Shown one piece after another: positions 1,913-7,415 of a DNA stretch of 64,000 nucleotides. The position numbers and the translations under genes were made by a program. The notes beneath the pieces were generated by a model that saw only the letters and a program-made list of their open reading frames with translations, ran no database searches and was not told the DNA's origin. Every line of letters starts with the position of its first letter. The stretch's first letter is position 1. This DNA comes from Notolepis coatsorum. Lineage: Eukaryota > Chordata > Actinopteri > Aulopiformes > Paralepididae. The DNA lies in NCBI GenBank assembly GCA_963971535.1, contig OZ020585.1, positions 156,994,915 through 157,058,914 of the forward strand, read 5' to 3'.

Positions 1913-2771
1913 TGTAACAAGCTTGATAATAATAAACAAACCTGTTCAGCTATAAAGAATGAGAGTACTGGAACAGTGTTAAATTCAAAGTGTTGTATTA
2001 ACCAAAAAGAGGATAAAAATAAATGGGGCACCCCATAGCAACGTATGGTACAACAAAAATCATCTCAAACCAATAAGAATGGTCCCGTCAGCTTTACAGT
2101 CCATTAGCCCCAACATAAATGTTACCATGTATGTTTACCATGTATGTTTACCGTGTATAATGTTACCATGCCTATGTTACCATGTATGTTTACCATGTAT
2201 GTTTACCATGTATAATGTACCGTGTATGATGTTACCATGTATGTTTACCATGTATGTTTACCGTGTATAATGTTACCATGCCTATGTTACCATGTATGTT
2301 TACCATGTATGTTTACCATGTATAATGTACCGTGTATAATGTTCAGGCCTACCAGACCATGCAGCCTGCATGGTAGTTAGTAGTGTCCAATAACACTCAA
2401 ACCTTTGAGTGTCCAAAAGGTGATAAGTCCTGGGTTGATCCACATCTTAGAAAAGGAAAGGAAAAAGAAGTAATCCACTGGGAAGCAACACTGCAGCTGA
2501 CCTGTCCTTGGTTACTGAAGAATCTTTTAGGAGGCCTGGCAAAATCCCTCCTTCCTCTCACCATAGCAGTAAGCAAACAAAACTCCATGAGGCATGATTC
2601 CAATCCAAGATGGCCCCCTGATGGTTAGGACCGCCCCTAACCACACCCATACCTGGAATCTTAAAGGTCAAGTGACCCAAATATGCTGACATTGGCATAT
2701 CCTAACATATTGGGCCCACACTTCATTTATCAACACATTGACATCTTCTTCATAAAGTAACGCATGTTACA
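1913..2771 (-). repeat. 3' LTR of the YBX1-carrying retrotransposon
   Basis: 859 bp with TG...CA ends, nearly identical to 6557-7415. It contains a GTTTACCATGTAT-type minisatellite (about 2120-2345) present in both LTRs, so it predates the insertion. Confidence 0.92.
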
Positions 2772-2784
2772 CATGCCCCCCACC
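2772..2784 (-). other. polypurine tract of the YBX1-carrying element
   Basis: The minus strand reads GGTGGGGGGCATG immediately before the 3' LTR. Its position and composition fit a polypurine primer and set the element's orientation as minus. Confidence 0.7.
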
Positions 2785-2813
2785 AAGCGTAGTACCACTG
2801 CCATAAAACATCT

Positions 2814-4475
2814 TCATGTTCTCAACATGCAAGGTTGATGGGTGTTAGGACTGCTATCCATGGCTACTCTGTAGTTCACTGACCCTAAACGTCCGAGAAC
2901 TGTGGCTGGCCCTCTCCACTTTGGAGCAAGTTTTGCCATAAACATGGCCTTGGCATCAGACAGTGGGTGCAACTTAACCCATACCTCCTCTCCTACTCCA
3001 AAGTATGGCGGGTAGCGCCGTCTGCCTGGGTAGGAGGGCCTGCGCTGCTGTGGCTGCATGTCTCCCACTGGGGCTCTCTCTGCCCCCTCGCAGCTGCTCT
3101 TCTTGCGGCCTTCACGGCTCCCGCTACTCGGCGGCTCGCCCTCGCCATCGCTTTGGTAGTTCTCAGGGTATTCTCCATTGCGGGGTGGGCCCCTCCTGCG
3201 GGGGTAGCGCCTGTAGCGGTTCCGGTCAGCTGCGTACTTGCTCCCCTGGACTGGAACGCCTGCTGGGCCGGTGACGTTGGCCGCCTCTGCTCCCTTCTCC
3301 CCTACGACCACATCAAACTCCACAGTGTCTCCTTCTCCAACACTGCGAAGGTATTTCCTTGGGTTGTTCTTTTTTATGGCCGTCTGGTGTACAAACACGT
3401 CCTCTTTCGTGTCATTCCTGTTGATAAAACCATATCCATTTCCGACGTTGAACCACTTGACTGTCCCCAAGACTTTTGTTGCGATGACCTTCTTATCCGC
3501 CGCGGAAGCTCCGGCTGCCGGGCTGGACGGGCTCTCTGCGTCGTCAGCGGGCTGCGGTGGTTGTTGCGTTTCGGCGGCCTCGCTGCTCATGGTTACTGGT
3601 TGGTAATGGTGGTCTTGTGCCGGCGGTGACTCTCTAGTGTGTTTCCCGGTGCTAGATAGTAACCTGGACCGGCGGTGGTGGGGGCTGCTGCCTTCGGGCT
3701 CTCTGCTTTCCACTCTCCGCTCCCGTTGCCGATCGAACTGGGCTATAGGGGTCGCTGCTAAGTACAGCCCCACCAAGGGCTTCCTCTTTTTATGCGGTGC
3801 AGCCATTGCCCCATCCCATAGTGGTGTGAGACCTTGTTTCACAGATTCGTGCTCATTATGCGAATGTTCAAAGGAAGACTCAAACTGGTTCAGCTCACCT
3901 GGCTGCCACTGTGGAGGGTCTGGCCCAGGCAGTAGAGGACTTACTCCAGGCAGCAGTAGAGGACTTACTACAGGCAGTAGAGGCAAGGGCAAGGGTCTAG
4001 GCATGAAAGGCAGGGAACCTTGCTCCTCATTTTCCATTTCAATACCACCATGTTCAAAATGTTCTGAAAAGTGAACAGATGGTGCATCATCCCGTACAGG
4101 AGTGATAGTCCTCCTAATGGGGTTTTGTGGTTGGGCATTAAGCTGTTTGTCTCGTCTTTTCAAACACTCCACCATTGACTGTTGGAGGTTATTAATTTCG
4201 CTCTGAAAAGTCTGTTGTAGTCGTTGACATTGACGGTCAATATAATACCTGAGAATGTCATCTTGTCTGGTTGTATTTATATGGAAAGCCTGGATCTCTC
4301 TTTCCACATCACTCAAACGTGACTGAAGCTGTGTAATGTCAGTAGCTACTTCGACTTCCCCCATCCCAGAGGTAGCAAATGCGCCAGAATGGATAACAGT
4401 GACCTCAGGTTGCCGTTCCTCACTACCCCCAGAGCCGTCATCATTCACATACAAGTCATCAGGAGTCTCAGCTAG
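2814..4475 (-). CDS. Gag-like / YBX1 / integrase-tail fusion ORF (3' part)
   Basis: A 546-codon stretch from a TTG at 4454, open without interruption up to the transposon inserted at 4485. Residues 1-110 (from 4454) are a coiled-coil-rich Gag-like region. About 240-288 looks like translated 5' leader. From Met289 the sequence matches vertebrate YBX1: an acidic, Pro/Ala-rich N-terminus, then a cold-shock domain at about 322-397 with RNP1-like GYGFI and RNP2-like VFVHQ, then a basic segment with RRYPRRRGPPRN. Near residue 485 it switches to VGEEVWVKLHPLSDA and APKWRGP, typical of the C-terminal tail of gypsy integrases. Introns of the host gene are absent, so capture was probably through cDNA. 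The reading frame is intact across both joints. I infer the cold-shock domain gives the protein RNA binding. Confidence 0.85.
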   Translation of the reverse strand, partial: LAETPDDLYVNDDGSGGSEERQPEVTVIHSGAFATSGMGEVEVATDITQLQSRLSDVEREIQAFHINTTRQDDILRYYIDRQCQRLQQTFQSEINNLQQSMVECLKRRDKQLNAQPQNPIRRTITPVRDDAPSVHFSEHFEHGGIEMENEEQGSLPFMPRPLPLPLLPVVSPLLLPGVSPLLPGPDPPQWQPGELNQFESSFEHSHNEHESVKQGLTPLWDGAMAAPHKKRKPLVGLYLAATPIAQFDRQRERRVESREPEGSSPHHRRSRLLSSTGKHTRESPPAQDHHYQPVTMSSEAAETQQPPQPADDAESPSSPAAGASAADKKVIATKVLGTVKWFNVGNGYGFINRNDTKEDVFVHQTAIKKNNPRKYLRSVGEGDTVEFDVVVGEKGAEAANVTGPAGVPVQGSKYAADRNRYRRYPRRRGPPRNGEYPENYQSDGEGEPPSSGSREGRKKSSCEGAERAPVGDMQPQQRRPSYPGRRRYPPYFGVGEEVWVKLHPLSDAKAMFMAKLAPKWRGPATVLGRLGSVNYRVAMDSSPNTHQPCMLRT

Positions 4476-4664
4476 ATCCTGTACGCGTGTTGCTTAATAA
4501 CAGCGGAACAGTGCAAAAATGCTTCCGCTTTCGTCACCGCACGCCACTACGGTAAAGCGCCTTTCTTTTCACGCCGCTTAGACAAATGCTATGGCATTTC
4601 TGCGTACATTGCAACGAATCACTTGGAACCTCGGCTGTCTTTAACTATGAGTGAACACAACGCA

Positions 4665-5310
4665 ACATTGTAACGTTAACGTGTAATTTACTATGGAATA
4701 TAGTATATTATCGCGACGATTGTAACGTTAACGTGTACTTCGCGAATATAGTATATTATCGCGACGCGTCGTCAGACTAAACGCTGTTGTGAACACAACA
4801 CATTGTAACGTTAACGTGTACTTCGCGACGTGTCGTCAGACTAAACAGTGTTGTGAACACAACACATTGTAACGTTAACGTGTACTTTACTATGGAATAT
4901 CAGAAGAAACTACTCAACCTCGGCTGTCTTTAACTAAACAGTGTTGTGAACACAACACATTGTAACGTTAACGTGTACTTCGCGACGCGTCGTCAGACTA
5001 AACAGTTTTGTGAACAACACATTGTAACGTTAACGTGTACTTTACTATGGAATATCAGAAGAAACTACTCAACCTCGGCTGTCTTTAACTATGAATGAAC
5101 ACAACACTCTAACTCACCATGTTTAGATAATAAAGTACTCAACCTCTACTTGTCTACTGTCTGACTGAACACAACACTCTAACTAACTTACCATGTTTAG
5201 ATAATGAAGTACTCAACCTCTACAGTCTTTAACTATGAGTGAACACAACACTCTAACTTACCATCTTTAGATAATGAAGTATGCAACCTCTACTGTATTT
5301 AACTATGAAG
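4665..5310. repeat. tandem repeats inside the 1.8-kb transposon
   Basis: Repeated blocks contain TAACGTTAACGTGTACTT, CGCGACG(C/T)GTCGTCAGACTAA and GTGAACACAACACATTGT, four to five copies with indels. They then grade into AACACAACACTCTAACT blocks. No coding potential is seen. Confidence 0.75.
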
Positions 5311-6308: not shown

Positions 6309-6452
6309 ATCCTGTACAGGATCTCTTCTTGTCACAAAAGGGCCAGCTGTGAAGTCTATAAGAGCCTCAGCAAGTTCTCCCTCTGCCTGGTCTGAGGAAA
6401 CCTCTTCTCCAACAATACTCCCTTGAATAGGAGAATGCATAGATGTAGCCAT
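6309..6452 (-). CDS. N-terminal 48 codons of the retrotransposon ORF
   Basis: It starts MATSMHSPIQGSIVGEE and is read from ATG at 6452 to the transposon at 6308. It is the 5' piece of the fusion ORF at 2814-4475; together they make about 600 codons. The start follows the primer-binding site by about 80 bases and is the first ATG with a long frame. I cannot assign a domain to these 48 residues; the position is that of Gag. Confidence 0.7.
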
Positions 6453-6531
6453 GGTATAGCAACCCCAAACTAACTAATCAAAACAAAAGCTTCTAACAAC
6501 AACATAGAGAATATTTTCCACTGTTTTTTTT

Positions 6532-6552
6532 AAGGTCCCTTCGTGGTTGCCA
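6532..6552 (-). other. primer-binding site, tRNA-Arg-like
   Basis: The minus strand reads TGGCAACCACGAAGGGACC four bases inside the 5' LTR. The complement resembles the 3' end of vertebrate tRNA-Arg(UCG) plus CCA, with one mismatch near the terminus (from memory of the tRNA). This supports minus-strand orientation. Confidence 0.7.
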
Positions 6553-6556
6553 TTTC

Positions 6557-7415
6557 TGTAACAAGCTTGATAATAATAAACAAACCTGTTCAGCTATAAA
6601 GAATGAGAGTACTGGAACAGTGTTAAATTCAAAGTGTTGTATTAACCAAAAAGAGGATCAAAATAAATGGGGCACCCCATAGCAACGTATGGTACAACAA
6701 AAATCATCTCAAACCAATAAGAACGGTCCTGTCAGCTTTACAGTCCATTAGCCCCAACATAAATGTTACCATGTATGTTTACCATGTATGTTTACCGTGT
6801 ATAATGTTACCATGCCTATGTTACCATGTATGTTTACCATGTATGTTTACCATGTATAATGTACCGTGTATGATGTTACCATGTATGTTTACCATGTATG
6901 TTTACCGTGTATAATGTTACCATGCCTATGTTACCATGTATGTTTACCATGTATGTTTACCATGTATAATGTACCGTGTATAATGTTCAGGCCTACCAGA
7001 CCATGCAGCCTGCATGGTAGTTAGTAGTGTCCAATAACACTCAAACCTTTGAGTGTCCAAAAGGTGATAAGTCCTGGGTTGATCCACATCTTAGAAAAGG
7101 AAAGGAAAAAGAAGTAATCCACTGGGAAGCAACACCGCAGCTGACCTGTCCTTGGTTACTGAAGAATCTTTTAGGAGGCCTGGCAAAATCCCTCCTTCCT
7201 CTCACCATAGCAGTAAGCAAACAAAACTCCATGAGGGATGATTCCAATCCAAGATGGCCCCCTGATGGTTAGGACCGCCCCTAACCACACCCATACCTGG
7301 AATCTTAAAGGTCAAGTGACCCAAATATGCTGACATTGGCATATCCTAACATATTGGGCCCACACTTCATTTATCAACACATTGACATCTTCTTCATAAA
7401 GTAACGCATGTTACA
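6557..7415 (-). repeat. 5' LTR of the YBX1-carrying retrotransposon
   Basis: 859 bp, the partner of 1913-2771. Differences seen by eye: one in the GAGGAT(A/C)AAAATAAA segment, two near 6725-6730, one near 7136 and one near 7237. Confidence 0.92.

What the first reader, a model, noticed from the sequence alone, without database searches (positions are those of the whole stretch)
1913..7415. LTR retrotransposon that captured a host YBX1 cDNA in frame
The element has matching 859-bp LTRs, a 4-bp target duplication, primer site and polypurine tract. Its single ORF joins a Gag-like coiled coil, YBX1 5' leader plus N-terminus plus complete cold-shock domain plus basic tail, and a gypsy integrase tail. 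Frame is kept at both joints and no host introns remain, which points to capture through reverse-transcribed RNA. Few LTR differences say it moved recently with this cargo. The RNA-binding cold-shock domain could replace the missing zinc knuckle or recruit a helper's RNA packaging (inference). Host gene transduction is well known in retroviruses and some plant elements; I know of no described fish element with YBX1.
Basis: partly seen in the sequence, partly recalled or inferred. Interest (0 to 1): 0.88.

Follow-up and report, generated by a model that had tools for sequence, protein, structure and literature searches.

The report
Jumping gene carrying stolen YBX1 gene
In a large fish genome a virus-like jumping gene picked up the messenger RNA of the host's RNA-binding protein YBX1, fused it in frame to its own proteins and spread with it, and a second, unrelated jumping-gene family in the same genome carries the same host gene too.

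Summary
The finding stands and is larger than reported. Window 1913-7415 is a minus-strand Ty3/Gypsy LTR element (859-bp LTRs, 5 differences, CTGC duplication) with spliced host ybx1 sequence in frame between a Gag-like start and an integrase tail. The capture is mobile: 29 of the 30 YBX1 loci opened are family copies, 28 of them with the same 5' joint, and ten LTR pairs differ by 0-1.1%. The intron-bearing host gene lies on another contig. A parental gypsy without YBX1, with related LTRs, gag and integrase, was found. At the 5' joint, parent and ybx1 mRNA share six bases (GCCCAG), as expected for template switching. A second gypsy family with unrelated LTRs also carries YBX1, from the same 5' point to a different 3' end; all 40 scored places match its young Gag-YBX1-tail form. 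Selection on YBX1 is weakly supported and expression untested, so function is open. Capture by LTR elements is known; I found no description of YBX1 fusions in my searches.

The parts
1909..1912 (.). target-site duplication CTGC, left copy
1913..2771 (-). 3' LTR (859 bp) with a 55-bp tandem repeat region
2772..2784 (-). polypurine tract (GGTGGGGGGCATG) next to the 3' LTR
   Evidence: sequence; similar bases before the 3' LTR in other copies
2814..2999 (-). integrase C-terminal tail (SH3-like) ending in the ORF stop
   Evidence: Pfam SH3_Tf2-1 E 2.3e-5, below cut-off; 94-95% DNA identity to the parental copies' IN tail
2996..3743 (-). captured host ybx1 mRNA: 5' leader from 3743, ATG at 3590, coding part to TTTGGAG; equals host mRNA positions 1-760 (the last four bases GGAG may come from either side)
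   Evidence: 95.3% to spliced host ybx1; no introns
3267..3467 (-). complete cold-shock domain
   Evidence: Pfam CSD E 5.1e-24; PDB 6a6j E 2e-52
3738..3793 (-). remnant of the parent's pol frame, ending in GCCCAG shared by parent and host mRNA (template-switch point)
   Evidence: 94.6% to L067 1803-1858
3794..4065 (-). 272 bp of unknown source, in frame
   Evidence: no Pfam match; no convincing match to the 13 loci compared; genome search not answered
4066..4484 (-). Gag N-terminal region shared with the parental copies (coiled coil by eye, not predicted by a tool)
   Evidence: 94.5-95.5% DNA to L067/L066
4485..6308 (.). DNA transposon insertion with about 70-bp terminal inverted repeats, flanked by 9-bp ATCCTGTAC (4476-4484 and 6309-6317)
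   Evidence: absent from copies such as L011, L014, L020
6309..6452 (-). start of the Gag-like frame (ATG at 6452), cut off by the transposon
6534..6552 (-). primer-binding-site-like stretch TGGCAACCACGAAGGGACC; close to the complement of tRNA-Arg(UCG) as recalled
   Evidence: sequence; tRNA identity recalled, not tested
6557..7415 (-). 5' LTR (859 bp)
7416..7419 (.). target-site duplication CTGC, right copy

Best explanation
The window holds one copy of a multi-copy, non-autonomous Ty3/Gypsy family (F1) that arose by RNA-level capture of host ybx1. Shown: a spliced ybx1 mRNA (isoform made with the short exon-5 donor) is joined to gypsy sequence. The 5' joint lies at a 6-base identity (GCCCAG) at the start of the ybx1 leader; at the 3' side the ybx1 frame runs into the integrase C-terminus. 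Capsid, protease, reverse transcriptase, RNase H and integrase core are missing, so copies need enzymes in trans, and a parental family with related LTRs, gag start, integrase tail and PPT is present. Inferred: the window's form (class A) is an internal-deletion derivative of a longer YBX1 form (class B); F1 RNA is packaged into the parental family's particles; and the Gag-like/YBX1/integrase-tail protein, if made, joins those particles through its Gag or integrase part and binds RNA through the cold-shock domain, favouring its own RNA. I give origin and trans-mobilisation about 0.9 and the role of the protein about 0.35.
For: Copies: 40 scored of 87 candidates match at 88-100%. 30 loci were opened: 29 F1 elements, 1 processed copy. 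28 of 29 keep the same 5' joint; L027 is truncated in the leader. Of 16 copies examined, 6 showed both outer flanks: 5 perfect 4-bp duplications, 1 with 3 of 4. Ten LTR pairs differ by 0-1.1%. Intron-bearing host gene on C44. Parental copies L066 and L067 share gag start, integrase and PPT; L067 has gag, RT, RNase H and IN domains. The integrase stretch matches at 99-100% in 39 places besides the query's own, 40 scored of 1310 candidates. Microhomology at the 5' joint. L022, L027 and L036 join YBX1 to other integrase points. 11 of 29 copies keep one frame through Gag-like part, CSD and IN tail; 20 of 29 keep the YBX1 frame without a stop. Residues at the CSD RNA-contact positions W, F, H are kept in 29 of 29 and the second F in 27 of 27 readable copies (contact role recalled).
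Against: Selection on YBX1 is weak: 48 synonymous, 92 nonsynonymous, 1 stop among distinct F1 variants (omega about 0.76; p 0.056 or 0.004 by mutation model). For the CSD alone omega is 0.86, not significant, and pairwise pN/pS among F1 copies is 0.90. The Arg after KWFNV is Arg in 9, Lys in 13 and Gly in 7 of 29 copies. No transcript or protein data. 272 bp at 3794-4065 and 13 bases at the class B 3' joint match neither parental copies nor host. In the YBX1 tree class A copies are not one clade (L015, L017, L018 and L023 sit among class B copies), so the A-from-B step was repeated or spread by recombination. The window copy's Gag frame is broken by a transposon.
Confidence: 0.85

Rival explanations
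1. Same origin and mobility, but YBX1 is only a passenger: ybx1 mRNA was captured by chance, and the LTRs and the parental family do all the work.
For: Weak purifying signal. 9 of 29 copies have a shifted or stopped YBX1 frame (L021, L023, L027, L029, L032-L035, L037), and L022's 3' joint is out of frame. At least four processed ybx1 copies elsewhere show that this mRNA is often reverse transcribed.
Against: Fewer amino-acid changes than in four processed copies (Fisher p 0.022; 0.076 if changes fixed in each group are counted). One stop among 141 distinct F1 variants. A second family keeps a YBX1 part with 0 stops among 102 variants in 23 copies, and its stem shows 15 synonymous to 15 nonsynonymous changes, p 0.017.
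Confidence: 0.45
2. Both families owe YBX1 to one capture; it was later swapped between F2 and F1 by template switching between co-packaged RNAs.
For: Both start within 1-2 bases of the same point of the ybx1 leader. The extra G at the F1 joint could come from the F1 parent.
Against: Different 3' ends (870 against 1057), unrelated LTRs, F1-fixed changes at 291, 420 and 836 absent from the F2 copies readable there, F1 clade support 0.996, and the three F2 copies with a leader lack about bases 61-159 that F1 keeps.
Confidence: 0.22
3. Capture by splicing: a gypsy copy in or near ybx1 gave a read-through transcript spliced to the integrase region.
For: The class A joint lies within a few bases of the exon-5 donor.
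Against: Class B runs past that point through the next exon and about ten bases into the last one. The 5' joint is a microhomology joint.
Confidence: 0.03
4. A LINE-made processed ybx1 copy inserted passively into an LTR element.
For: Processed ybx1 copies exist in this genome (L038/L041, L042, L045, L046).
Against: No 3'UTR, poly(A) or inner duplication; frame kept at the joints; F1 starts at leader base 1, these processed copies at 25-49, and they run to the stop codon.
Confidence: 0.02

Closest known systems
LTR-mediated retroposition in metazoans (Tan et al. 2016; paper not held, seen only through passages of PMC5408686 and PMC8232201)
   Same: spliced host mRNA joined to LTR-element RNA by template switching at short similarities; reported to include zebrafish
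   Different: here the chimera became a multi-copy family with an in-frame fusion, and parental copies and the 5' joint are in hand
Bs1 of maize (passage and reference title in PMC5408686)
   Same: LTR element with a hybrid ORF formed by transduction of cellular genes
   Different: plant, other genes; here a YBX1 cold-shock domain lies between Gag-like start and integrase tail
Orchid Ty3/Gypsy elements with an AlkB m6A demethylase (PMC9289625, abstract and outline seen)
   Same: Ty3/Gypsy family that acquired a domain acting on RNA
   Different: there an additional ORF in 25-kb elements with activity shown in vitro; here an in-frame fusion in a small element, activity untested
Crocodilian ERVs with KIT-ligand and nectin3 (PMC4299795, passages seen)
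   Same: vertebrate LTR elements carrying a host mRNA, in several copies; purifying selection reported for KIT-ligand
   Different: retroviruses rather than gypsy; other kinds of gene; nectin3 there replaces env
YB-1 as retroviral cofactor (PMC6040738, abstract and passages seen)
   Same: YB-1 reported to bind HIV-1 integrase directly, to co-precipitate with RSV and MLV integrase and to support viral RNA; a rationale for a YBX1-integrase-tail fusion
   Different: host protein acting in trans; not encoded by the element

Membership tests
Ty3/Gypsy LTR retrotransposon, non-autonomous derivative | paired LTRs with TG..CA ends and a short fixed-length target duplication | tested here: met
   of 16 copies examined 6 showed both flanks; 5 perfect 4-bp duplications, one 3 of 4
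Ty3/Gypsy LTR retrotransposon, non-autonomous derivative | primer-binding site and polypurine tract next to the LTRs | tested here: met
   by position and sequence; tRNA identity recalled only
Ty3/Gypsy LTR retrotransposon, non-autonomous derivative | a relative with RT, RNase H, then integrase (gypsy order) | tested here: met
   L067: Retrotrans_gag, RVT_1, RNase H, Integrase_H2C2, rve in that order
Ty3/Gypsy LTR retrotransposon, non-autonomous derivative | own reverse transcriptase and integrase catalytic domains (needed for autonomy) | tested here: not met
   no such domains in the window element's 559-codon frame or its N-terminal piece
LTR-mediated retroposition / gene capture | intronless host sequence inside an LTR element, no poly(A) or own duplication | tested here: met
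LTR-mediated retroposition / gene capture | microsimilarity between parent RNA and mRNA at the 5' joint | tested here: met
   GCCCAG
LTR-mediated retroposition / gene capture | microsimilarity at the 3' joint | tested here: inconclusive
   13 unassigned bases at the class B joint
functional host-gene acquisition | purifying selection on the captured frame | tested here: inconclusive
   weak constraint
functional host-gene acquisition | expression of the fusion protein | not testable with these tools
   no transcript or protein data held

The most novel reading that the evidence does not exclude
Two unrelated Ty3/Gypsy families of one fish independently captured ybx1 from the start of its mRNA, and each keeps a different RNA-binding part of it fused to Gag: F1 the cold-shock domain, the young F2 form the charged C-terminal tail behind the zinc knuckle. 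These would be convergent, selected host-derived nucleocapsid-like modules that non-autonomous elements use to compete for a helper's particles.
Probability: 0.28. Interest if true: 0.92.

Novelty: new variant of a known kind. Interest (0 to 1): 0.78.

Why it matters
Here the host gene, parental element copies, the 5' joint, derived junction classes, recombinants and recent copies sit in one genome, so the steps from mRNA to mobile chimera can be followed. If the YBX1 parts work in packaging, they would show retroelements recruiting a host RNA-binding protein by encoding it, which bears on how Gag nucleocapsids arise.

Tried and rejected
Looked for relatives of the F1 Gag-like part and of the F2 Gag-YBX1 part in 5.8 billion proteins: 0 hits at E 1e-3 among 2331 and 5356 candidates; the tool finds only relatives sharing exact words, so this does not show absence elsewhere. 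Considered that the class A joint, at the exon-5 donor, meant splicing; class B speaks against it. Considered that the shared 5' start proves a cap site; the GCCCAG microhomology gives another reason, so I only say that it lies at the start of the leader. Considered the cold-shock domain as replacement of a lost zinc knuckle; the parental copy examined has none. tRNA and Rfam scans of the window found nothing. A genome search with the F1 Gag part did not complete. The source of the 272 bp at 3794-4065 stayed open because its genome search did not complete.

Rows dropped before counts: 10 of 40 matches had no locus; by coordinates two are processed copies (L045, L046) and two are F2 (L043, L044); six were not inspected. 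L041 and L038 are the same place, as are L048 and part of L055. L039 is in the processed set but not in that. The Fisher test left out changes fixed in each group; with them p is 0.076. In the F2 stem count the host's own changes are included; processed copies share the F2 letter at 3 of 29 differing positions.
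Full report
WHAT IS THERE. The element lies on the minus strand: 5' LTR 6557-7415, 3' LTR 1913-2771, both 859 bp with 5 mismatches and no gaps, flanked by CTGC. The 559-codon frame 2814-4493 holds a cold-shock domain (Pfam E 5.1e-24; 182 bits to zebrafish YB-1) and an integrase-tail SH3-like domain (E 2.3e-5, below the curated cut-off). A DNA transposon of 1824 bp (4485-6308) with about 70-bp inverted ends and a 9-bp duplication interrupts the Gag-like part. 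In copies such as L011, L014 and L020 the two Gag pieces overlap by exactly those 9 bp, which is the empty site.

HOST GENE. The intron-bearing ybx1 gene lies on another contig (C44, loci L053, L049, L040). Its exon borders follow GT-AG. Four introns are missing from the window copy's YBX1 part and six from class B copies. The isoform captured uses a donor right after PPYF. F1 YBX1 sequence equals host mRNA positions 1-760 (class A) or 1-870 (class B) in copies complete over that part, at about 92-97% identity; 870 lies about ten bases into the last exon used.

A MOBILE FAMILY. One search scored 40 of 87 candidates, all at 88-100%. Of 30 loci opened, 29 are elements of this family (F1) and one is a processed copy. 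28 of 29 show the same 5' joint; L027 is truncated in the leader, and L037 keeps about 50 bp upstream. The 3' side falls into 11 class A (L009-L015, L017, L018, L023, L037), 11 class B (L016, L019-L021, L024-L026, L029-L032) and 7 others: L022 and L027 into the integrase core out of frame, L036 into the integrase zinc-binding region, L028 into the LTR, L033/L034 tandem deletion forms, L035 broken. Class A looks like class B minus the YBX1 tail, but class A copies are not one clade in the YBX1 tree, so the step was repeated or spread by recombination. Of 16 copies examined for duplications, 6 showed both outer flanks: five perfect (CTGC, CTGG, ACGC, ACGC, ATCC) and one 3 of 4. Ten LTR pairs differ by 0-1.0% over the 198-620 bases compared; one of them, 0 of 199 there, shows 6 of 528 over the whole LTR.

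THE PARENT. LTR pairs led to two interiors without the YBX1 coding part, L066 and L067. They share the F1 Gag start (94.5-95.5% DNA), integrase core (98%), integrase tail and PPT (94-95%). L067 has one open frame of 1471 codons with Retrotrans_gag, RVT_1, RNase H, Integrase_H2C2 and rve, a DTG protease motif and no CCHC motif; L066 is broken into several frames. The integrase stretch of L036 matches at 99-100% over 461-467 bases in 39 places besides its own (40 scored of 1310 candidates). At the 5' joint the parent reads ..CCTGTAGCCCAG|CAAGAAG, F1 ..CCTATAGCCCAG|TTCGATCGG and the host ..CTCTGCCCAG|TTCGATCGG. F1 also holds 272 bp (3794-4065) and, at the class B 3' joint, 13 bases that match neither these parental copies nor host.

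CODING CONSTRAINT. 20 of 29 copies keep the YBX1 frame with no stop; 11 of 29, counting the window copy, keep one frame through Gag-like part, CSD and integrase tail. pN/pS is 0.55 among F1 copies and 0.38 against host; five processed copies give 0.97 and 0.66. Within the CSD the F1 values are 0.90 and 0.41. Distinct F1 variants are 48 synonymous, 92 nonsynonymous and 1 stop; omega is about 0.76, with p 0.056 under the fragment's own mutation bias and 0.004 under the LTR bias. For the CSD alone omega is 0.86, not significant. Against four processed copies Fisher p is 0.022, or 0.076 with fixed changes counted. Residues at the RNA-contact positions (recalled from human YB-1) are unchanged in the readable copies. 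I read this as weak support.

A SECOND FAMILY. A protein search with the YBX1 C-terminus gave 136 matches (150 of 255 candidates scored). Loci L043, L044, L047, L048 (inside L055), L050 and L052 belong to another element family, F2, by their shared Gag or tail sequences. The two F2 elements compared, L055 and L050, have no significant match to the F1 LTR. They show a PNMA-like capsid (E 1e-4, below cut-off), L055 a protease and L050 a zinc knuckle. In L043, L047 and L048 the YBX1 part starts at host base 1 or 2 and ends at 1057, with inner deletions. L050 keeps only the C-terminal tail, in a 781-codon frame behind the zinc knuckle. 40 of 40 scored places (914 candidates, the query's own included) match this form at 91-100%, 18 of them at 99% or more; 17 rows list frames of 777-781 codons. 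In 23 copies there are 34 synonymous, 68 nonsynonymous and 0 stop variants (omega 0.85, p 0.19). Between host and F2 there are 15 synonymous and 15 nonsynonymous changes (p 0.017 for an expected share of 0.30), 3 of 29 differing positions being shared with processed copies. F1-fixed changes at 291, 420 and 836 are absent from the F2 copies readable there, and the F1 clade has support 0.996. Two captures are the simpler reading; a swap is not excluded.

HOW IT LIKELY WORKS. Shown: a microhomology joint at the 5' side, loss of enzyme domains, repeated insertion, a parental family with related ends, and recombinants. Inferred: packaging in that family's particles, and a helper role for the fusion protein. 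YB-1 is reported to bind HIV-1 integrase, to co-precipitate with RSV and MLV integrase and to support viral RNA (PMC6040738, abstract and passages seen), which suits a YBX1-integrase-tail fusion but proves nothing here.

LITERATURE. A search for cold shock domain with LTR retrotransposon, gypsy and captured gave 0 papers. Y-box/LTR retrotransposon/Ty3/captured and ybx1/retrotransposon/captured/gypsy/zebrafish listed no paper on such an element among the rows shown (12 of 202 and 10 of 76). The library holds open-licence papers only. Known relatives in kind: LTR-mediated retroposition and Bs1 (passages of PMC5408686 and PMC8232201), crocodilian ERVs (passages of PMC4299795), orchid gypsy AlkB (abstract and outline of PMC9289625). 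Hence a new variant of a known kind.

Noticed in passing
window 7712-16761: Element with 1267-bp direct terminal repeats (99.6%) and long ORFs at 11403-15435 that look BEL/Pao-like (by eye, no family search)
   Followed up: no
window 32615-41191: Element with about 1.1-kb terminal repeats (99.2%) and an open frame of 1881 codons, BEL/Pao-looking by eye
   Followed up: no
window 43964-50196: Direct repeats of 2396 bp (99.9%) around a 1.4-kb interior, with inner tandem repeats; perhaps a non-autonomous element with very long LTRs
   Followed up: no
window 53471-56851: Small element with 342-bp terminal repeats (99.7%) and a Gag-like frame; possibly another non-autonomous family
   Followed up: no
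window 18185-21578: Long satellite with a short repeat unit, open in several frames
   Followed up: no
L042 (C8:2015116): Processed ybx1 copy with a doubled N-terminus and cold-shock domain in one open frame of 486 codons
   Followed up: no
L043, L044, L047, L048, L050, L052, L055: Second Ty3/Gypsy family carrying YBX1, with PNMA-like capsid and zinc knuckle; L055 keeps a protease stretch, and no RT was noticed in its frames
   Followed up: partly
L033/L034 (C30:75771976-75775564): Tandem F1 elements sharing an LTR, with a further deletion in YBX1
   Followed up: no
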